From: a virus | Length of the DNA: 39,813 nt | Strand: one strand, 5' to 3' | Virus record (IMG/VR): IMGVR_UViG_3300027976_000084 | Coordinates: 1-39,813 of that record | In this document: positions 6,119 through 28,686 of the stretch, one piece after another | Layout of the letters: every line of letters starts with the position of its first letter | How positions within the stretch are numbered: the stretch's first letter is position 1 | Notes under the pieces: generated by a model | What the model was told of the DNA's origin: nothing | What the model saw: only the letters and a program-made list of their open reading frames with translations | Database searches by the model: none | Made by a program: the position numbers and the translations under genes

Positions 6119-7324
6119 ATGATCAGTAAAACAACTCCTACAAATTGTAATTTTTGCGACAAGCATAAAGATCAAGTAATCAAACTGATTGTAGGACACC
6201 ACGTAGGCATATGCAACGAATGTGTTGAATTTTGCCATGATTTGCTTGCAAAAGAACCTGCATCCAAAAAAGTTTCAAGCAAGTCACTGTTGGATCCGCG
6301 AGAAATACACAAACATCTTGACCAATACGTAATAGGACAAGACACTGCAAAAATGGTGTTGAGTGTTGCTATTGCAAATCATTATAAACGCATTGCTAAC
6401 CAAGATGCCGATAACGAAATACAAAAAGCAAACATTCTGATAACAGGGCCAACCGGCACAGGCAAAACACTGATGGCTCGCACAGTGGCCAAGTACTTGG
6501 ATGTTCCGTTTGTTATTGCAGACGCCACTACATTGACCGAGTCAGGCTATGTTGGCGACGATGTTGACAGTGTAATACAGCGATTGTATCAAGCAAGCGG
6601 AAACGATGCAGAGCGTACACAACGCGGTATTGTTTTCTTGGATGAAGTAGATAAAATAAGTCGCAAAAGCGAAAGCTCCACAGTGTCTCGAGACGTGTCT
6701 GGCGAAGGTGTCCAGCAAGCATTGCTCAAACTGATCGAAGGCACCAAATGCAAAATAGCTTACCAGAATGGACGCAAGGCCGCCAACGGCGAAACATTTG
6801 AAATTGACACTTCAAACATATTGTTCATTGTGGGTGGCGCATTTGTTGGACTAGATAAAATCATCAAGAGCCGAACGCAAGGAACCACCATTGGTTTTGG
6901 ACGTGCAGTGGAAGTGCCAAAAGATGCAATTTCCGAAACAATTACACCAGAGGACCTAGTACGCTACGGCATGATACCAGAGTTTGTGGGCAGATTTCCC
7001 AGCATTGTGCAATTGGAAGAATTGACCAAGCTGCAACTTGTTACTATTCTTACCGAAGCAAAGAACAATTTGGTTGGCCAGTACAGATGGTTGTTTGACC
7101 AAGATGGTGTAGGGCTGGACTTTGATACGGACAGTTTAGATTTGATCGCAGAACGAACTATTAGTAAAAAAACTGGTGCTAGAGGATTGCATACAGAACT
7201 TGAGCGTGTGTTGTTGCCGCACATGTACAATCTACAAGATTACAAATCACGCAATATTTTAAAAATTGCCATCGACAAAACACAAGTGGTCAATCCACTT
7301 AAATTAGCACAACAAAATTCTTAA
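6119..7324 (+). CDS. clpX: ClpX, AAA+ unfoldase subunit of the Clp protease
   Basis: 401 aa against 424 in E. coli; recognises tagged proteins, unfolds them with ATP and feeds them to ClpP. The N-terminal zinc-binding domain has Cys10, Cys13, Cys32 and Cys35. Walker A is GPTGTGKT (110-117), the pore-1 loop is GYVG (143-146), Walker B is IVFLDEVD (171-178), and the sensor-2 region is GARGL (353-357). The ClpP-docking IGF tripeptide is kept at 258-260. The RKH pore loop of bacterial ClpX reads RKA here (219-221). It starts 1 nt after the membrane protein gene and lies upstream of the groES promoter. The phage also encodes ClpP, so a phage ClpXP is feasible. Confidence 0.97.
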
Positions 7325-7700: not shown

Positions 7701-9317
<1,617 letters not shown>

Positions 9318-11066: not shown

Positions 11067-11429
11067 ATGAACATTATTATTGACCCAGAACAGTTAGAAG
11101 AGTATCAAAAAAAGTACACTGTACTAGAACTAGATACGTTTCGCATAGTGCCCGAGAACAAAGAAGTAAAAGCGTACTGTGTGGTTGAAACAATCCCTAT
11201 TGGAGAAATACAGTTGACCCAGAGCAATAAAAATCTACACAACGGATTGATGGAAAGTTATCGTACTCGCAACTGGAACTATTGCAACGAAGCATTGGAC
11301 CATTTGGTTGGCTGCTGGAACAAAGAGCTAGATTCTTTCTACGAAGACCTACGCACCAGACTCAACATGCACATGGAAAATGATCCTGGCGATTTGTGGG
11401 ACGGGATTATAGAAAAACACACAGCATGA
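11067..11429 (+). CDS. Hypothetical protein (120 aa)
   Basis: Divergent from the metallophosphoesterase, with AAAAGGAAT before the ATG. Acidic, soluble, alpha/beta N-terminus and a helical C-terminal half rich in Trp and Asn (SYRTRNWNYCNEALDHLVGC). No recognised domain. Its TGA overlaps the ATG of the following dehydrogenase, so the two are translationally coupled. Confidence 0.7.
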   Translation: MNIIIDPEQLEEYQKKYTVLELDTFRIVPENKEVKAYCVVETIPIGEIQLTQSNKNLHNGLMESYRTRNWNYCNEALDHLVGCWNKELDSFYEDLRTRLNMHMENDPGDLWDGIIEKHTA

Positions 11430-12223
11430 AAATAGGTATTGTTGGGTTTGGATATGTAGGCTCTGCTGTTGCAGCCAGTTATCCTGAAAGTGATGTTATG
11501 ATTGCAGACCCAGCATACCCAGATATATCAGTTGATGTTGGCAAACTGAAAAGTCAGTGTGCAGTTATTTTTGTATGTGTTCCGACACCCAGTGGTCCAT
11601 CGGGCTGTGACACAAGTATTGCAGACAGTGTGCTGGTTAAATTGGCCGGTTATAATGGTGTTGTTGTTGTAAAATCAACTGCGCCACCAGCTTGGTATAC
11701 CTTGGCAGAGGCCACTGCAGGACTGCGCATTGCACATGTGCCAGAATTCCTGACACAAGCCAGGGCAAAGTACGATTATGTAAACCCTTACAAAATTGTT
11801 GTGGGCTGCAAGACAGAATTGCGTGATGAAATTGCATGTATTCTGTTGGCCAGCGCTGTCAACTTTGATCGTGTCAACATCGAATACTGTTCAATTGCAG
11901 AAGCAAGTTTCTTCAAGTACATGGCCAATACCATGCTGGCTATGAAAGTTGTGATGAACAACGAATTTGCTAAACTAGCAGATTCAACTGGGATGGATTG
12001 GGAAACTGTAAGTTCTATTGCCAAAACTGATTCTAGATTAGGAAACACACACTGGGCTGTGCCAGGGCTTGACGGTGAATTGGGATTTGGTGGTGCATGC
12101 TTTCCCAAGGATACTGAAGCATTGGCAGTTATTGCCAAACAAGCCAATGTTGATATGACAATGCTTGACACTGCTATCCGTACAAACAACCAACTCAAAG
12201 TCAAAGTCAAAGTTATTTCTTAG
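11426..12223 (+). CDS. Short UDP-sugar/GDP-mannose dehydrogenase-like protein
   Basis: 265 aa from ATG 11426 (ATGA overlap); a start 30 nt upstream is in frame but would extend into the previous gene. The Rossmann motif is GIVGFGYVG (4-12), the catalytic lysine lies in FFKYMANT (Lys164), and the nucleophilic cysteine is Cys225 in GFGGACFPKD. The protein stops about 35 residues later, so the C-terminal UDP-binding domain of normal enzymes (390-440 aa) is missing. The end is encoded by three copies of AAAGTC (KVKVKV), where slippage might have truncated the frame. May act on a nucleotide sugar, or need a partner for its missing domain. Confidence 0.85.
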   Translation: MKIGIVGFGYVGSAVAASYPESDVMIADPAYPDISVDVGKLKSQCAVIFVCVPTPSGPSGCDTSIADSVLVKLAGYNGVVVVKSTAPPAWYTLAEATAGLRIAHVPEFLTQARAKYDYVNPYKIVVGCKTELRDEIACILLASAVNFDRVNIEYCSIAEASFFKYMANTMLAMKVVMNNEFAKLADSTGMDWETVSSIAKTDSRLGNTHWAVPGLDGELGFGGACFPKDTEALAVIAKQANVDMTMLDTAIRTNNQLKVKVKVIS

Positions 12224-12278: not shown

Positions 12279-13154
12279 TTACTTTGCCCAAAGATCTCTA
12301 GATTCTGCTTTGATTTTGTCGCTTAGTGCAACATAGTCCAATGACTCTGCAATAGCATCGTTGTTGTAGCACCAGTCAAAGAATTTGTAAACATCTTTTG
12401 TTCGCTCGCCGTTGGGGTAAACAATAATGAATGTAGATGCTGTTAGTGCCCACTCGCCACTCTTAAATGCTGCTGCACTAGGCTCAACTCCATTAATCTT
12501 TGTAGTTGTCAATCCGTTTTGTTTTGCGTATGCATATTCAACATAACCGATAGCACCTTTGATCTGCCCAACCATTGCTGCAACACCAGCATTACCTTTG
12601 CCGCCTACAGTATTGCCTTGCCACTTGACCGCTTTACCTTCACCAATCTTAGCTTTAAAGTCTGCTGATGCTGCTGACAAGTAGCCGGTAAAGATTGCTG
12701 TGGTTCCTGAACCGTCGGCCCGATGAACAATAGCAATTGCACTGTCGGGTAGTCCGGAAGCAACGTCTTTCCAGTTAGTGACAGTACCAGAGAAAATATC
12801 TGCCGTCTGCTTCAATGTCAAGTTGAGTTGATTGGACTCTACACCCGGTAGGTTAACAACTACAACAACTCCGCCCATGACCATTGGGAACTGTACCTGT
12901 CCCATCTTGTCTAATTCTTCTTGACTACGAGCAACGTCACTTGCACCAAAGTCTACCGTCTTCTTGTCAATTTGTTTGATACCACCGCTTGAACCAATTG
13001 ACTGATAGTTAATTGCATTGCCTGTTTCTGCTCTGTATGCCTCTGCCCATTTAAAGTAGACCGGTGCTGGGAAGCTGGCTCCAGCTCCTGTTATATTTTG
13101 TGCATACGCGGTTGTTGATAAAGTGACAACCAGTGCCGCTAATAGTTTGTTCAT
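12279..13154 (-). CDS. pstS: PstS, periplasmic phosphate-binding protein
   Basis: 291 aa from the ATG complement at 13154, chosen for its AAGGAG site and because it gives a proper signal peptide (MNKLLAALVVTLSTTAYA, residues 1-18); the longer frame adds 11 residues with no site. Mature protein begins NITGAGASFPAPVYFKWAEA, typical of PstS, with the phosphate-binding segments IGSSGGIKQI, VDFGASD and HRADGSGTT. It captures phosphate for the host PstCAB transporter; no other pst gene is present. A Pho-box-like site lies upstream. Cyanophages carry pstS in the same way. Confidence 0.96.
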   Translation of the reverse strand: MNKLLAALVVTLSTTAYAQNITGAGASFPAPVYFKWAEAYRAETGNAINYQSIGSSGGIKQIDKKTVDFGASDVARSQEELDKMGQVQFPMVMGGVVVVVNLPGVESNQLNLTLKQTADIFSGTVTNWKDVASGLPDSAIAIVHRADGSGTTAIFTGYLSAASADFKAKIGEGKAVKWQGNTVGGKGNAGVAAMVGQIKGAIGYVEYAYAKQNGLTTTKINGVEPSAAAFKSGEWALTASTFIIVYPNGERTKDVYKFFDWCYNNDAIAESLDYVALSDKIKAESRDLWAK

Positions 13155-13189
13155 TTGTGTAATACTCCTTTGTGTTAAATTACACAAAT

Positions 13190-15646: not shown

Positions 15647-16714
15647 ATGAAAAATATAGGCTTTATTGGCATTGGTAAATTGGGACTGGACTGTGCAGAA
15701 GTCATGGCAGAAAAGTTCACAGTCCGGGGTTATGATATTTACCCAAGAACCAGTGACCTAATAAAAGTTTGTGGCATCGAAGAAACTGTAAACGAAAGTG
15801 AATGGATATTTATTGCTGTTCCAACACCACACGAAGAAGGCTACGATGGTAGTGTGCCCAGTAGCCACATGACGCCCAAAGATTTTGGACACGATGCTGT
15901 GAAAGATGCCATCAACAAAATTAATCAGTATGCCACCGGTCCCAAAAAGGTCGTACTGATCAGCACAGTGTTGCCTGGCACAACCCGCAGACACTTTATA
16001 AACTTGTTGGACAACCAACATCAATTTTTATACAATCCATACTTGATTGCCATGGGCTCTGTCAAATGGGATATGGCCAACCCAGAAATGATTATGATTG
16101 GTACCGAAGACGGAAACTGGAACGGTGTCGCATCCGAGCTAGTAGACATCTACAAACAGATCATGCAAAACAGCCCGCGCTACGAAATTGGCACATGGGA
16201 CGAATGCGAAGCAATCAAAATCTTCTACAATACATTTATCAGTGCCAAAGTTGGACTGGTAAACATGATCCAAGACTTTGCTATGAAGATTGGCAACATT
16301 GATGTGGACGTGGTAACTGATGCATTGGCTCGTAGCACTATGCGTATCATGGGACCCAAGTACATGACAGCAGGTATGGGCGATGCTGGTGCTTGTGTGT
16401 TACCCGAATTTAAAGTTACTGTAAATGGTGTTGCTATTACAATGAAAGATTTGTACACAGAATACTGCTCGGATTCTGAAAAGATTCGGCTTGTTGATTC
16501 TGTAAATTATTCATGCCGGATTCGAGACCAGAAAAAAATTGACATTGTTACCTGCCGAGATTATACTGGAGAATTAATTAAATTTACCACAGATGACGGG
16601 GACGAATTATTAACAACTCCGGAACATTTAATTCCTGTGTTGCGCAACGGAACCAGGATTATTGTCAAAGCAGAAGAAATTTTAGAAACAGATAAATTGT
16701 ATAAGATTGGGTAA
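15647..16714 (+). CDS. UDP-sugar 6-dehydrogenase N-extein fused to N-half of a split intein
   Basis: 355 aa. Residues 1-249 are the NAD-binding and central part of a UDP-glucose 6-dehydrogenase (Rossmann GFIGIGKLG at 4-12; VPTP at 58-61; end TAGMGDAGA). At Cys250 the sequence turns into an intein: block A starts C250-V-L-P-E-F-K-V, and block B has the T-x-x-H motif T324-P-E-H327. The intein half is 106 residues and stops at TAA 16712-16714. The matching C-half is at 17571. Protein trans-splicing would rejoin 249 + 165 residues into a normal 414-aa enzyme. The site is exactly the catalytic cysteine motif (G-x-G-x-x-x-C-x-P-x-D). Confidence 0.9.
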   Translation: MKNIGFIGIGKLGLDCAEVMAEKFTVRGYDIYPRTSDLIKVCGIEETVNESEWIFIAVPTPHEEGYDGSVPSSHMTPKDFGHDAVKDAINKINQYATGPKKVVLISTVLPGTTRRHFINLLDNQHQFLYNPYLIAMGSVKWDMANPEMIMIGTEDGNWNGVASELVDIYKQIMQNSPRYEIGTWDECEAIKIFYNTFISAKVGLVNMIQDFAMKIGNIDVDVVTDALARSTMRIMGPKYMTAGMGDAGACVLPEFKVTVNGVAITMKDLYTEYCSDSEKIRLVDSVNYSCRIRDQKKIDIVTCRDYTGELIKFTTDDGDELLTTPEHLIPVLRNGTRIIVKAEEILETDKLYKIG

Positions 16715-16728
16715 TGCAGGCGCTTGCT
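16713..16728 (+). repeat. Relic of the dehydrogenase insertion site after the intein N-half
   Basis: ATGCAGGCGCTTGC (16715 region) repeats ATGCTGGTGCTTGT (16383-16396), the end of the N-extein; 11 of 14 bases match and all three differences are third codon positions. Read in the frame of the extein it gives N-A-G-A-C, against D-A-G-A-C at the real splice site. It lies between the intein N-half stop and the nuclease gene, and looks like a fragment of another allele of the dehydrogenase. Confidence 0.55.
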
Positions 16729-16761
16729 ATGTATATTTTTAATTCTGTACTAAATAATTGT

Positions 16762-17574
16762 ATGAAAATGCAAGAATTCAAAAAATCGTACTCGTGGACT
16801 GCCAAAAAAACTGGAAAAACAACTACAGTTCAAGAAACAATGGTAGAGTTAATTTGTGACTGCTGTAACAAGCTGCACACTCGCACTAAATCGCATTATG
16901 CTAAAATGCAAAAAAATCCATTATTCTCACAGGATTTTTGTAACAAATGTTGGCAAGCGCTACAAAATAATCAACCTGCACGAATTGAAAAAATGACAAA
17001 GGGAGTCCGGGACGCATATCAGAATCCTGTAGTTAGGGAGCGATTATCGCAGGCTATGAAAGGTGTCAATCTTGGTGAAAAAAATGCCATGAAACGTGCA
17101 GATGTAAGGGCTAAAGTTTCTGCAACCAGGTCAGTGCTAATGCAAGATCCCGAATTTCGGTTTAAATTCAAACAAGGATCTATAGATGCCTGGGCCCGCG
17201 GGGCATATGATAATTCCCAATTGTTGGGTTTACAAATGGGATACACCAAGTGGTACGATTATACCCACTCATCGGGTGTAACTTACAAGGTGCAAGGAAA
17301 ATATGAACTTGCATTCATAAAATTTCTCGACGAGAATACATTAACATTTGAGTGCCATCACGGTAAGATACCATATGTTGCTGATGACGGATTGACTCAT
17401 CATTATTTTCCAGACTTTTATGTGCATACCTGGCAATGTTATGTTGACCCTAAGGCGACCCACTGGTACAAAAAGCAATACAGAAAATTTGAGTTATTGG
17501 CCGAGCAACATCCGGACATTAGGATAGAGATCTTAACTGAAGATAAATTAAGGAAACTAGGAATTAAATTATGA
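16762..17574 (+). CDS. Free-standing homing endonuclease inside the split intein
   Basis: 270 aa from ATG 16762; an upstream in-frame ATG at 16714 overlaps the TAA of the previous gene but would read through the site relic, so it is less likely. A zinc knuckle with two CxxC pairs (about residues 32/35 and 60/63) is followed by a NUMOD3-like DNA-binding stretch (GVNLGEKNAMKRADVRAK) and a C-terminal nuclease domain with Glu182, the PDF motif (HHYFPDFYV, Asp218) and D229-P-K231, consistent with a PD-(D/E)xK or Vsr-like fold. It should cut intein-free copies of the dehydrogenase gene. Its TGA overlaps the C-half start. Confidence 0.75.
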   Translation: MKMQEFKKSYSWTAKKTGKTTTVQETMVELICDCCNKLHTRTKSHYAKMQKNPLFSQDFCNKCWQALQNNQPARIEKMTKGVRDAYQNPVVRERLSQAMKGVNLGEKNAMKRADVRAKVSATRSVLMQDPEFRFKFKQGSIDAWARGAYDNSQLLGLQMGYTKWYDYTHSSGVTYKVQGKYELAFIKFLDENTLTFECHHGKIPYVADDGLTHHYFPDFYVHTWQCYVDPKATHWYKKQYRKFELLAEQHPDIRIEILTEDKLRKLGIKL

Positions 17575-18188
17575 AAATTGAAAAAATTAACTACACTGGA
17601 AAAGTGTACAACTTAGAAGTTGAGCCAACCCATTCCGTCAACGATGACCAGTTTTACATAAATGCAGATACTGGACTAGTAGTGCATAATTGTCATCCTA
17701 GAGACAATATTGCACTACGTTGGCTTGCAGAGGAATATGACATTGGTTACGATTTGTTTGACACAGTTATGAGTGCTAGAGAAGTACAAGCAAAGAACCT
17801 AGCAGAATTTTTAATTGCACAAAGCCAACTCGAATTGGACTTGCCCATTGTGATTCACGGCAAGGCATACAAACCCGATGTTCCTTATTGTATTGGCAGC
17901 TACTCGACCTTGATTGGACATTACATCCAGCAGCGTGGCATTGATGTAAAGTATGTTGATCCGTTGGCAGATGATGCCACTGACGTTGTTGCAGAAGTTG
18001 ACGGTCCTGCTGTTTATTTGTGGGCACACAACCGCAAGATCACTTACGAATACACAGGCGACCAACTAGATACACAACCTTATTGTACAATACATCCAGG
18101 CAGTGTCATTGTCGATCCTTGGCGAAAAATATCCAAGACCATGGACGGTATTAAAGTGGTACACTATGGGAATACTCGACAAAAATAA
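17571..18188 (+). CDS. C-half of the split intein fused to UDP-sugar 6-dehydrogenase C-extein
   Basis: 205 aa. Residues 1-40 are the intein C-half: block F VYNLEVEPTHSVNDDQFYI and block G LVVHN, ending His39-Asn40, followed by the +1 nucleophile Cys41. C41-H-P-R-D-N-I-A-L is the catalytic motif of the dehydrogenase, so the same cysteine serves splicing and catalysis. Residues 41-205 give the central and C-terminal domains (IVIHGKAYKPDVPYCIGSYS is the UDP-binding domain start). Starts within the nuclease stop (ATGA), ends by TAATG overlap with the next gene. Only the spliced product can be an active enzyme. Confidence 0.9.
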   Translation: MKIEKINYTGKVYNLEVEPTHSVNDDQFYINADTGLVVHNCHPRDNIALRWLAEEYDIGYDLFDTVMSAREVQAKNLAEFLIAQSQLELDLPIVIHGKAYKPDVPYCIGSYSTLIGHYIQQRGIDVKYVDPLADDATDVVAEVDGPAVYLWAHNRKITYEYTGDQLDTQPYCTIHPGSVIVDPWRKISKTMDGIKVVHYGNTRQK

Positions 18189-18700
18189 TGCATACCGTAA
18201 AAAAATATCAACTGTACAAGTTTTGGGATGATGAGTTTAATAACTTGGACTATGTCAACGAACCATTCAATGATACAAGTTTAGTTGCCAAATGGACTGC
18301 ACTAGGGTATCCTACCAAGTTCACAGGTGACATGTGCGATATGCGCAGTGCACAGCCAAGTTGGAATCAACGGTTTGTTGATATCTTTTCTGCACAAGGA
18401 TGGCAAGACATTGGTACCAGTTACTACCGTATGAATACCGGAACAGTGTTGCCCACCCACGGTGATTTATATTTGAAATATATTGACCTGTTCAATCTGC
18501 AAGGACAGGAATCGAGTATACGACGTGCAGTTGTATTTTTAAACGATTGGGAACCCGGGCACTACGCAGAATATTGCAACGAGCCATTTGTAAATTGGGC
18601 AGCAGGATCTACAGTAGAGTGGAGTTATGATACTTTGCACATGGCAGCAAATTTGGGTCTGACACCCAGGTATACCCTTCAGGTCACAGGACACATATGA
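18188..18700 (+). CDS. 2-oxoglutarate/Fe(II)-dependent oxygenase-like protein
   Basis: 170 aa. The double-stranded beta-helix metal site is present: H91-G-D93 (LPTHGDLY) and distal His151 (TLHMAANLG), with Arg161 (PRYTLQVTG) ten residues on as the 2-oxoglutarate carboxylate ligand. VVFLNDWEPGHYAEY and WAAGSTVEW are typical internal strands. Such enzymes hydroxylate amino acids, sugars or nucleobases; substrate unknown. Coupled to its neighbours by TAATG and ATGA overlaps, so it is probably part of the same pathway as the dehydrogenase and amidinotransferase. Confidence 0.8.
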   Translation: MHTVKKYQLYKFWDDEFNNLDYVNEPFNDTSLVAKWTALGYPTKFTGDMCDMRSAQPSWNQRFVDIFSAQGWQDIGTSYYRMNTGTVLPTHGDLYLKYIDLFNLQGQESSIRRAVVFLNDWEPGHYAEYCNEPFVNWAAGSTVEWSYDTLHMAANLGLTPRYTLQVTGHI

Positions 18701-19614
18701 TCAACAGCCGTAACGAGTGGGATACACTAGAAGAAATAGTAGTCGGCAGTGCAACAAATGCAAACTGGCCCAGCTCTGATCCTGTGTTTGCACAAGAGTC
18801 CTTGAAGACATTGTGGACCGACACTCCTGTGCCCAGCGGACCAGTGCCTGGTTGGATTGTTGAGGAAGCCAATGTTGAACTTGATAACCTGTCAGAAATA
18901 CTGGTCAATTACGGCGCAACTGTGCGTAGGCCAACGCCTATGGATTTTGTAGCACGTGAAGGCATGTACAACTATTGTCCCAGGGATAGATTGATTGTAG
19001 CAGGCGATGTGTTGGTAGACTGCAACATGATGTATCCATGCCGCAATCAAGAAACAGAAGCATTACAACAAGTGATGAAACAAGCAAGAACTGTGCTGAC
19101 TATGCCACGTGATCAAGGTATGATTTTGGATGCAGCCAATGTTTGCAGACTGGGCGACACATGGTTATATTTAGAAAGCCACAGCGGCAACCGTGCTGCA
19201 TATGATTGGTTGTGTCAACAGTTTCCTGATATCAATATTGAGTTATGCAACTTCTACGCTGGCGTACACATTGATTCTACCATTGTTCCCATACGTGAAG
19301 GATTGGTGTTGTTGAACGCTGCGCGAGTAAACGAAACAAACTGTCCAAAGGCATTTGATTCATGGGAAAAGATATACATCAATGATGTAGTGCCACAAGG
19401 CTTTTTTGAGTATCCATACGCTTCAAAATGGATTGCAATGAATATGTTGGTGTTGGATCCGAAGACAGTTATTGTAGATCAGTACCAAACTGAGCTAATT
19501 ACAGTATTAAAGTCAAAAGGCGTTGATACTATTCCACACACACTGAGTCACAGTCGTACATTAGGTGGCGGATTCCATTGCGTAACACTTGACACACGGA
19601 GAAAACATGATTGA
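18697..19614 (+). CDS. Amidinotransferase (glycine/inosamine-phosphate type)
   Basis: 305 aa, guanidino-group-modifying superfamily. Catalytic residues are all visible: Asp145 (ILDAANVCR), His191 (AGVHIDSTI) and Cys295 (GGGFHCVTLD). NEWDTLEEIVVGSA at the start is the conserved opening of arginine:glycine and streptamine amidinotransferases. These enzymes move an amidino group from arginine to an amine such as glycine or an aminosugar. It overlaps the upstream gene by ATGA and the tail-fibre gene by 8 nt. The combination with a UDP-sugar dehydrogenase suggests guanidination of a sugar or surface component; that is inference. Confidence 0.9.
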   Translation: MINSRNEWDTLEEIVVGSATNANWPSSDPVFAQESLKTLWTDTPVPSGPVPGWIVEEANVELDNLSEILVNYGATVRRPTPMDFVAREGMYNYCPRDRLIVAGDVLVDCNMMYPCRNQETEALQQVMKQARTVLTMPRDQGMILDAANVCRLGDTWLYLESHSGNRAAYDWLCQQFPDINIELCNFYAGVHIDSTIVPIREGLVLLNAARVNETNCPKAFDSWEKIYINDVVPQGFFEYPYASKWIAMNMLVLDPKTVIVDQYQTELITVLKSKGVDTIPHTLSHSRTLGGGFHCVTLDTRRKHD

Positions 19615-22636: not shown

Positions 22637-22817
22637 AAAGTTTATAACAAGTATATTGGCAATCTTAACTGGATTATTTTTTGCTATCAATTCTCTAAAA
22701 TATTCATTGGGGGCAACCAGCAATATGGGTCCTGGATATTATCCGTTGGTGGTATCTTGTATTATTATAGCAATTGGTGTGGTATTACTGATGCGGACAA
22801 TGCATGAGCTTCGTTGA
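22629..22817 (+). CDS. Short TctB-like small membrane subunit
   Basis: 62 aa with two membrane helices (about 5-22 and 38-56) and the TctB signature NMGPGYYPLVVS. Usual TctB proteins are about 140-180 aa with four helices, so this one is roughly the N-terminal half only. It overlaps tctA by 14 nt in the order expected for the Tct operon. Could be a trimmed but working small subunit or a degraded gene. Confidence 0.75.
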   Translation: MHKKFITSILAILTGLFFAINSLKYSLGATSNMGPGYYPLVVSCIIIAIGVVLLMRTMHELR

Positions 22818-24303
22818 TGCTTTAATATTTGGTTTTTATCAAGCTGGCACTGTTAATAATTTAATGTTTTGTGTTGGTGGAGTGTTGTTGGGCACTCTTG
22901 TCGGAGTATTGCCAGGACTTGGTCCAATGGCAACTGTTTCCATATTGTTGCCAATGACATACAGCACAGGCGATCCATTGGCTTCAATTATATTGCTGGC
23001 CGGGATATATTATGGTGCTCAATATGGCGGAAGCACAACTGCTATCTTGTTACGACTTCCGGGCGAAGCATCGTCACTGGTCACTATGCTTGATGGAAAC
23101 AAAATGGCATTGAATGGCAGAGCAGGCGCTGCCTTATCAATTGCTGCAATGTCAAGTTTTTTTGCCGGAACAGTTGCAACATTGTTGATTGCTGTTGCAG
23201 GAGAACCAATGGCCAATTTTGCAATCAAATTTGGTCCTGCTGAATATACAGCATTGTTGATTATGGGATTGGTAATATGCGTGACTATCACTGACGGTGA
23301 TGCACTTGGTAGTGGTATTGTGTTGTTGATTGGAATATTGTTTGGTCTCGTTGGCACTGACGTTAATTCCGGAGTACCAAGATTTGAGTTTGGCTCATAC
23401 GAATTACTTGATGGCCTTTCGTTTGGTGTATTAGCAATGGGAGTATTTGGGTTATCTGAAATTTTATGGAACATGTTGCACGAGCCCAAGACACCATCGC
23501 CCAAACCGATAACTTTAAAGGATATGTATCCTACTCGAAAAGAATTCAATAATTCAATAGGGGCTACTTTTCGTGGCACAACAGTGGGCAGTATAATAGG
23601 ATTGATCCCAGGCGCCGGAGTTACTGTCAGTTCTTTTTTTAGTTACGCATTTGAAAAACAAATCAGTAAACACCCAGAAAAATTTGGCACAGGCATAGTT
23701 GAAGGCATTGCAGCACCCGAATCAGCAAACAATGCTGCTGCTCAAACCGGCTTCATACCAATGTTAAGTTTTGGAATACCAACTACTCCATTGATGGCGT
23801 TGATGGTAGGCGCTTTGGTGATGCAAGGCATCCAACCCGGTCCTCACGTGATATCAACTAATCCTGAGTTGTTTTGGGGGCTAATTGCAAGTATGTGGAT
23901 TGGTAATTGTATACTGCTAATTTTAAATTTACCAATGATAGGAATATGGGTCAAGGTATTGCAAGTACCAAGAATAATATTATTTCCTGTAATTATGTCA
24001 GCATGTTTGTATGGAGCATACAGTTTAAACAACAACATGTTTGATGTATGGATGTTGATTCCGTTTACCCTTTTGGGCTATCTGCTTAAATGGTTAGATA
24101 TTAACCCTACACCAATGGCGCTTGGATTTATAGTTGGGCCGTTGTTGGAAGAAACTTTTCGTCGATCTTTAATAATTAGTCAAGGAGAATGGGATACATT
24201 TGTACAGTCCCCGATATCGATATCAATATTAAGTATAACAGTAATGTCTATACTAGTTAAACTTTATACAGCATCAATTTCTTCCAAGTACAAAAATGAT
24301 TAA
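22804..24303 (+). CDS. tctA: TctA, large membrane subunit of a tripartite tricarboxylate transporter
   Basis: 499 aa, full length. About 12 membrane helices with the family signature motifs VLPGLGPMATVSILLPMTYS near the start and LIPGAGVTVSSFFSY in the second half, plus APESANNAAAQTGFIPML. Imports citrate-like or other carboxylates through the inner membrane with TctB and a periplasmic TctC binding protein; no tctC is visible in the window, so a host binding protein would be needed. Phage copies of tctA are uncommon. Sequence around it is A+T rich like other transferred genes. Confidence 0.95.
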   Translation: MSFVDALIFGFYQAGTVNNLMFCVGGVLLGTLVGVLPGLGPMATVSILLPMTYSTGDPLASIILLAGIYYGAQYGGSTTAILLRLPGEASSLVTMLDGNKMALNGRAGAALSIAAMSSFFAGTVATLLIAVAGEPMANFAIKFGPAEYTALLIMGLVICVTITDGDALGSGIVLLIGILFGLVGTDVNSGVPRFEFGSYELLDGLSFGVLAMGVFGLSEILWNMLHEPKTPSPKPITLKDMYPTRKEFNNSIGATFRGTTVGSIIGLIPGAGVTVSSFFSYAFEKQISKHPEKFGTGIVEGIAAPESANNAAAQTGFIPMLSFGIPTTPLMALMVGALVMQGIQPGPHVISTNPELFWGLIASMWIGNCILLILNLPMIGIWVKVLQVPRIILFPVIMSACLYGAYSLNNNMFDVWMLIPFTLLGYLLKWLDINPTPMALGFIVGPLLEETFRRSLIISQGEWDTFVQSPISISILSITVMSILVKLYTASISSKYKND

Positions 24304-28113: not shown

Positions 28114-28686
28114 ATGGCAACCCAACACGAATACGTTAGTACAGACCACACACAAGCTCTTGCCGACAACGGCATGTATGTGCTGATGGGCGAAATTGAA
28201 TCTGAAACTGTCAAGCCTATTATCGAATGGATATTGCACGAAAATTATGTAAGCAAGAAACGCCGTAAAGAACTGCTGTTGATGATCTGTAGCGAAGGCG
28301 GCACAATGCAAGATGCATTTGCGTTGATTGATGTGATGCGCAGCAGTACCATTCCGATCAAGACTGTTGGTCTGGGAATGATTGCCAGTTCTGGGTTGTT
28401 GATTTTTCTTGCTGGCGGCAAAGGGCGTCGTGTACTAACACCAAACACTTCAATACTGAGTCATCAGTTCAGTTGGTACAACGAAGGCAAGGCTCACGAA
28501 TTGTTTGCCACAATGAAAGAGTTTGAGTTGACCCAAGTGCGTATGGTCAACCATTACAAAGAATGCACGGGCTTATCAGAGGATGAAATTCGTGCAAACT
28601 TATTGCCCGCACACGATGTTTGGCTCACTGCCGAAGATGCCAAACGTCTCAACATCTGCGACAATATTTCTGTACTGACTCGTTAA
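28114..28686 (+). CDS. Divergent ClpP-family peptidase (190 aa)
   Basis: Serine peptidase of the Clp proteolytic subunit family, diverged from canonical ClpP. Expected triad by alignment with E. coli: Ser92 (GLGMIASSG), His117 (ILSHQFSW) and Asp168 (PAHDVW), all present. The oxyanion strand reads ICSEGG where canonical ClpP has INSPGG, a Pro-to-Glu change. Length is normal. It may form a ring alone or mix with the canonical ClpP at 30396. The gene has no obvious Shine-Dalgarno and sits behind the hairpin-promoter region at 28027. Confidence 0.85.
   Translation: MATQHEYVSTDHTQALADNGMYVLMGEIESETVKPIIEWILHENYVSKKRRKELLLMICSEGGTMQDAFALIDVMRSSTIPIKTVGLGMIASSGLLIFLAGGKGRRVLTPNTSILSHQFSWYNEGKAHELFATMKEFELTQVRMVNHYKECTGLSEDEIRANLLPAHDVWLTAEDAKRLNICDNISVLTR

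What the first reader, a model, noticed from the sequence alone, without database searches (positions are those of the whole stretch)
15647..18188. Fractured UDP-sugar dehydrogenase: split intein, with a nuclease gene between the halves, inserted exactly at the catalytic cysteine
The sequence shows N-extein + 106-residue intein N-half (Cys250 block A, T-x-x-H block B), then a separate nuclease gene, then a 40-residue intein C-half ending His-Asn, followed by Cys41. The C-extein starts with the dehydrogenase active-site motif (C-H-P-R-D), so the intein's +1 nucleophile is also the catalytic cysteine of the enzyme. Three ORFs join by 1-4 nt overlaps (TAATG, ATGA). Known families: split inteins with an intervening endonuclease were described as fractured genes in phage-like metagenome sequences (helicase, ribonucleotide reductase, IMPDH hosts). 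Inference: a dehydrogenase as host gene and this exact site may be new; enzyme activity would be completely dependent on trans-splicing.
Basis: partly seen in the sequence, partly recalled or inferred. Interest (0 to 1): 0.92.

Follow-up and report, generated by a model that had tools for sequence, protein, structure and literature searches.

The report
Phage sugar enzyme in two spliced pieces
A virus of bacteria carries a sugar-processing enzyme gene broken in two by a self-splicing protein element with a DNA-cutting gene in the middle; the enzyme should work only after its two pieces are joined, and related viruses show how such broken genes spread, swap their nuclease or lose it.

Summary
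ORF 15647-16714 is a UDP-sugar dehydrogenase (UGDH) N-part plus a 106-aa intein N-half; 16714-17574 is a PD-(D/E)XK nuclease related to phage T7 endonuclease I; 17571-18188 is a 40-aa intein C-half plus the UGDH C-part. Splicing would give a 414-aa UGDH whose catalytic cysteine is the intein's +1 residue. Intein-free alleles joined at exactly this codon occur in 74 viral loci; 42 other viral contigs carry split versions (28 with the T7-endoI-like nuclease, 7 GIY-YIG-type, 6 without nuclease, 1 cut off). Against L004 the cassette has dS 0.24-0.50 while the exteins exceed 2, so it moved between divergent alleles. Two nuclease-less loci keep the last nuclease codons, which hold the ribosome-binding site of the C-half. 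What seems new is the fractured form in this gene and its evolutionary series. Splicing and nuclease activity are inferred, not shown. A second, short, uninterrupted UGDH in the window means dehydrogenase activity need not depend wholly on splicing.

The parts
15647..16393 (+). N-extein: residues 1-249 of the UDP-sugar dehydrogenase (NAD-binding and central domains), ending GMGDAGA
   Evidence: PF03721 2.5e-14 and PF00984 1.9e-9; PHROG 9148 3.4e-59; 74 uninterrupted homologues
16394..16711 (+). Intein N-half, 106 aa: Cys1, block B TPEH; stop codon 16712-16714
   Evidence: TIGR01445 32.9 bits, cut-off 24.5; PF14890 9.7e-5, below its cut-off; C1, T75, H78 invariant in 13 aligned sequences
16714..17574 (+). 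Nuclease gene, 286 aa as annotated; conserved start probably Met17 at 16762. C-terminal PD-(D/E)XK domain: E198, PD at 233-234, DxK at 245/247
   Evidence: PF05367 5.9e-5 (23.2 bits, cut-off 29.1); family profile against T7 endonuclease I 1m0d 2.1e-6; catalytic-type residues invariant in 9 sequences
17559..17562 (+). AGGA, likely ribosome-binding site of the C-half, inside the last nuclease codons (LGIKL)
   Evidence: Purine-rich site at about the same place upstream of the C-half start in the loci listed, and kept in L012 and L098, which have lost the nuclease
17571..17690 (+). Intein C-half, 40 aa, ending VVHN
   Evidence: TIGR01443 15.0 bits, cut-off 15.6; aligned with contiguous sister intein L114, whose AlphaFold model matches solved inteins
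17691..18185 (+). C-extein, 165 aa, starting at the catalytic Cys (CHPRD); UDP-binding domain; stop codon 18186-18188
   Evidence: Spliced 414-aa sequence aligns its Cys250 with the active-site Cys motif of solved UGDHs; PF03720 0.0025, below its cut-off; PHROG 9148 3.6e-20

Best explanation
This is a fractured gene. A class 1 split intein interrupts a phage UDP-sugar dehydrogenase at its catalytic cysteine, and a homing-type nuclease gene sits between the intein halves. The two precursors (355 and 205 aa) are translated from one gene cluster; the C-half start uses a ribosome-binding site inside the end of the nuclease gene. The intein halves associate, Cys250 of the N precursor and Cys41 of the C precursor carry the acyl shifts, Asn40 cyclises, and a 414-aa dehydrogenase is released with Cys41 as its active-site nucleophile. 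The nuclease most likely cuts intein-free dehydrogenase alleles near the Cys codon during mixed infection, so that repair copies the whole cassette. Shown by sequence: anatomy, intein-free alleles, movement of the cassette between alleles, purifying selection, loss of the nuclease with retention of the split. Inferred: trans-splicing, use of the ribosome-binding site, and DNA cleavage.
For: Class 1 splicing residues are intact in both halves in the relatives with complete halves. TIGR01445 above cut-off. The contiguous sister intein L114, folded with the split halves as its alignment, matches solved inteins at E 2e-10; the top hit is the phage Aes123 PolB1 split intein. 74 intein-free alleles joined at the exact codon. 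Against L004, DNA identity is 89-95% in the cassette and 75/69% in the exteins, with the change at the insertion boundaries; dS is 0.24-0.50 in the cassette and above 2 in the exteins, and omega is 0.04-0.08 in intein and nuclease. Intein and extein trees disagree in placing L240 and L105. The nuclease family matches T7 endonuclease I, and two relatives pass PF05367's cut-off. Two loci without nuclease keep both halves and a short remnant of the nuclease end.
Against: No expression, splicing or cleavage data were found for any member. The C-half scores just below the NCBIfam cut-off, and PF14890 is below its gathering score. The Foldseek search with the full nuclease model found nothing at E <= 0.001. 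The nuclease's target site is unknown. A second, uninterrupted short UGDH in the window (11396-12223) could lighten the need for this one.
Confidence: 0.88

Rival explanations
1. The gene is a dying, nuclease-broken dehydrogenase and the halves no longer splice; the second UGDH does the work.
For: A second UGDH with an intact GACFPKD site lies at 11396-12223; splicing has not been shown.
Against: Low dN/dS in intein halves and exteins; intact halves in many lineages; nuclease-less lineages L012, L098 and L227-L230 still keep both halves open.
Confidence: 0.05
2. The halves associate without splicing and the dehydrogenase works as a two-chain non-covalent enzyme.
For: Split enzymes that work unspliced are known in phages (a nuclease-split ribonucleotide reductase, a reference cited in PMC3322345).
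Against: The splicing residues are conserved, and the intein end directly abuts the active-site Cys, which would have to act with a 40-aa intein tail attached to it.
Confidence: 0.04
3. The nuclease is a resolvase-type gene that sits there by chance and has no homing role.
For: Its nearest solved relatives are phage endonuclease I structures, a family known as Holliday-junction resolvases; free-standing relatives occur in other phages.
Against: The six closest relatives found in the nuclease scan of viral contigs all lie between UGDH halves; the cassette moved as a unit; an unrelated GIY-YIG-type nuclease occupies the same slot in L090 and relatives.
Confidence: 0.1

Closest known systems
Fractured genes with split inteins (Dassa et al. 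2009; cited in held papers, its text not held here)
   Same: A conserved enzyme broken by a split intein with a free-standing endonuclease gene between the halves, in phage-like metagenomic DNA
   Different: From my memory of the abstract, those hosts are DNA synthesis and repair enzymes and half of the nucleases are Vsr-like; here the host is a nucleotide-sugar dehydrogenase and the nuclease is T7-endonuclease-I-like (GIY-YIG-type in some relatives)
'udp' intein allele of archaeal and bacterial UDP-glucose 6-dehydrogenase (PMC4071816; loci)
   Same: Same host family; the cellular loci show insertion at the same catalytic Cys
   Different: Those inteins are contiguous, many 460-490 aa long, and form a separate branch (100/100) in the tree
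T7 endonuclease I family (PF05367; PDB 1m0d)
   Same: PD-(D/E)XK catalytic domain and residues
   Different: Extra N-terminal region of about 180 aa; lies inside a split intein; the window's own score is below the Pfam cut-off

Membership tests
Class 1 intein (HINT domain) | Cys1, T-x-x-H in block B, C-terminal His-Asn, Cys/Ser/Thr at +1 | tested here: met
Class 1 intein (HINT domain) | Profile match to intein N- and C-terminal regions above curated cut-off | tested here: inconclusive
   N-half 32.9 bits, cut-off 24.5; C-half 15.0 bits, cut-off 15.6
Class 1 intein (HINT domain) | HINT fold | tested here: met
   Tested on sister intein L114 with the window halves in its alignment: mean pLDDT 76, 61 hits at E <= 0.001, those listed being inteins or related HINT domains
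Class 1 intein (HINT domain) | Protein splicing activity | not testable with these tools
   Needs expression
Fractured gene (split intein with endonuclease gene between halves) | Enzyme gene split in two ORFs, each carrying one intein half | tested here: met
Fractured gene (split intein with endonuclease gene between halves) | Free-standing endonuclease gene between the halves | tested here: met
Fractured gene (split intein with endonuclease gene between halves) | Host is a DNA synthesis or repair enzyme (typical in the original set, recalled; not treated as defining) | tested here: not met
   Host is UGDH
Contiguous 'udp' UGDH intein | Insertion before the catalytic Cys of UGDH | tested here: met
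Contiguous 'udp' UGDH intein | One continuous reading frame | tested here: not met
   Three ORFs
T7 endonuclease I (PF05367) | Score above Pfam gathering cut-off | tested here: not met
   Window 23.2 bits, cut-off 29.1; relatives L231 37.3 and L233 29.3 pass
T7 endonuclease I (PF05367) | E...PD...(D/E)xK catalytic residues | tested here: met
   E198, PD233-234, D245/K247 invariant in 9 sequences; PD and DxK aligned to 1m0d
Homing endonuclease | Site-specific cleavage of the intein-free allele | not testable with these tools
   Only indirect: cassette mobility

The most novel reading that the evidence does not exclude
The catalytic-cysteine site of phage UGDH carries, in one related set of inteins, every state of fracture evolution: empty, contiguous mini-intein, split with one nuclease type, split with an unrelated nuclease, and split after nuclease loss. 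The split outlives the nuclease because the C-half has come to depend on a ribosome-binding site inside the nuclease gene, so the host enzyme stays dependent on trans-splicing.
Probability: 0.5. Interest if true: 0.72.

Novelty: new member of a known kind. Interest (0 to 1): 0.58.

Why it matters
It extends fractured genes to a metabolic enzyme and gives a natural series at one site for asking how contiguous inteins become split, whether the split is reversible, and what keeps it once the nuclease is gone. It also offers a set of uncharacterised natural split inteins, several of them diverged from each other, that could be tested as protein-joining tools.

Tried and rejected
New site or new host gene: rejected. 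Vsr-like (EDxHD) nuclease of the published fractured genes: no such match; T7 endonuclease I matched instead. F-CphI-type (Endo VII) nuclease: a different motif. Foldseek on the whole nuclease model: no match at E <= 0.001, perhaps because the model is multi-domain with pTM 0.39. Ubiquitin hits in the phmmer search of the joined intein: weak repeat matches summed over polyubiquitin, ignored. Alignments A6 and A7 of L114 with both sets of halves were mis-registered; trimming the halves gave A8, which was folded. Whether contiguous L114 is ancestral or re-fused: the tree nests it among split inteins (96/93), but the AU test does not reject a single split clade (p 0.29). A promoter-like site inside the intein N-half (16539-16567) belongs to a set of sites no more numerous than in shuffles and is altered in L004. 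LR756502 looked as if it reached into the intein, but its UGDH is intein-free. No paper on a split UGDH intein was found in six searches of a library that lacks many subscription papers.

Full report
What is there. Three plus-strand ORFs follow each other: 15647-16714 (355 aa), 16714-17574 (286 aa) and 17571-18188 (205 aa). The first is the N-terminal part of a UDP-sugar dehydrogenase (residues 1-249) followed by a 106-aa intein N-half starting at Cys250. The last is a 40-aa intein C-half ending in His-Asn, followed by the rest of the dehydrogenase, which starts Cys-His-Pro-Arg-Asp. The record is an IMG/VR virus record of 39,813 bases.

Intein identity. The N-half passes NCBIfam TIGR01445 (32.9 bits, cut-off 24.5) and the C-half is just short of TIGR01443 (15.0, cut-off 15.6). 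C1, T75, H78 and HN+C are conserved in the relatives. One related locus, L114, has the same intein family in one unbroken frame. I folded L114's intein with the window's and the other split halves as its alignment (A8); the model (mean pLDDT 76, pTM 0.69) matches solved inteins, first the phage Aes123 PolB1 split intein (E 2e-10) and also KlbA, NrdJ-1 and gp41-1. This is a test on a sister, not on the window pair directly.

Catalytic cysteine. The joined 414-aa sequence aligns with solved UGDHs, and its Cys250 falls on the cysteine of their GGSC motif. That this is the catalytic cysteine of the family is established knowledge. The intein's +1 nucleophile is therefore also the enzyme's active-site residue.

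Empty alleles. In 74 viral loci the dehydrogenase is continuous and joins at exactly this codon. This fixes the insertion boundaries.

Mobility. Between the window and L004, DNA identity is 75% in the N-extein, 89% in the intein N-half, 92% in the nuclease, 95% in the intein C-half and 69% in the C-extein, changing at the insertion boundaries. Synonymous divergence is near saturation in the exteins (dS 3.1 and 2.2) but 0.50, 0.35 and 0.24 in the cassette, so a difference in protein constraint does not explain it. The cassette thus moved between diverged alleles. L089/L105 show the same pattern in dN, and intein and extein trees place L240 and L105 differently.

Nuclease. The C-terminal third matches T7 endonuclease I (1m0d: phmmer 5.1e-5; family profile 2.1e-6). 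PF05367 is below cut-off for the window but above it for relatives L231 and L233. E198, P233-D234, D245 and K247 are invariant. Free-standing relatives occur in other phages, for example next to the major capsid gene of Vibrio phage Va1. A homing role is inferred.

States at the same site. In 42 viral contigs besides the window the gene is split: 28 with the T7-endoI-like nuclease, 7 with a GIY-YIG-type nuclease, 6 with no nuclease (three lineages), 1 cut off by the contig end. The GIY-YIG label rests on its YIYKW...WYIGSR motif read by eye; Pfam gave no hit. Several contigs are near-copies, so these are not independent events, and three contigs (L002, L003, L082) carry the window's own version. 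L096/L101 carry a large contiguous intein of another kind at the same Cys.

Footprint of nuclease loss. In L012 the halves are separated by 21 nt that end TTAGGAATTAAATTATGA (overlapping the C-half ATG), and in L098 by a similar short stretch; both read LGIKL* in the frame of the nuclease end. A purine-rich ribosome-binding site lies at about the same place before the C-half in the other loci examined. In the intein tree L006, which has the nuclease, groups with L098 to the exclusion of L012 (97/87), consistent with two losses. My reading is that the C-half depends on that site, which is why it is kept.

Cellular relatives. A genome scan for an intein end plus C-[FLIM]-P-K-D found 88 stretches; 72 have a long open upstream frame, and UGDH similarity flanks the intein in most, in Haloarchaea, Planctomycetota, Omnitrophota, Actinomycetota and others. 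PMC4071816 lists a 'udp' allele, including M. jannaschii. The site is an intein hotspot, not new. The phage and the sampled cellular UGDH inteins form two separate groups (100/100).

Limits. No activity has been shown for any of the proteins. The Dassa 2009 text was not available, so comparison with it rests partly on memory. Viral scans return at most 80 loci and use patterns, so counts are lower bounds.

Noticed in passing
window 11396-12223 (+): A second, short UGDH (275 aa, PF00984 8.5e-23) with an uninterrupted GFGGACFPKD site and no C-terminal UDP-binding domain.
   Followed up: partly
L099 and L100, UGDH N-part (L099:4845-6701:-): A second, contiguous intein in the same UGDH gene (after IKVFYN, before TFISAK), in addition to the split one at the catalytic Cys.
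   Followed up: partly
L231, L232, L233, L241: Short-type UGDHs of other lineages are fractured at the same Cys with the same nuclease family; their C-exteins are only about 50-64 aa.
   Followed up: partly
window 22804-24303 (+): A full-length TctA-like tricarboxylate transporter subunit (PF01970, 8e-148) in a virus record.
   Followed up: no
window 6119-7324, 7704-9317, 12279-13187, 28114-28686: ClpX-like, GroEL-like, phosphate-binding (PstS-like) and ClpP-like genes in the same record.
   Followed up: no
window 18697-19614 (+): Protein that looks by eye like an amidinotransferase, just downstream of the fractured gene; matches only PHROG 25854 of unknown function.
   Followed up: no
L159, L185 (haloarchaeal contigs): UGDH intein C-ends whose open frame reaches only 204 or 166 aa upstream without touching the contig edge: frameshift or a cellular split form.
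   Followed up: no
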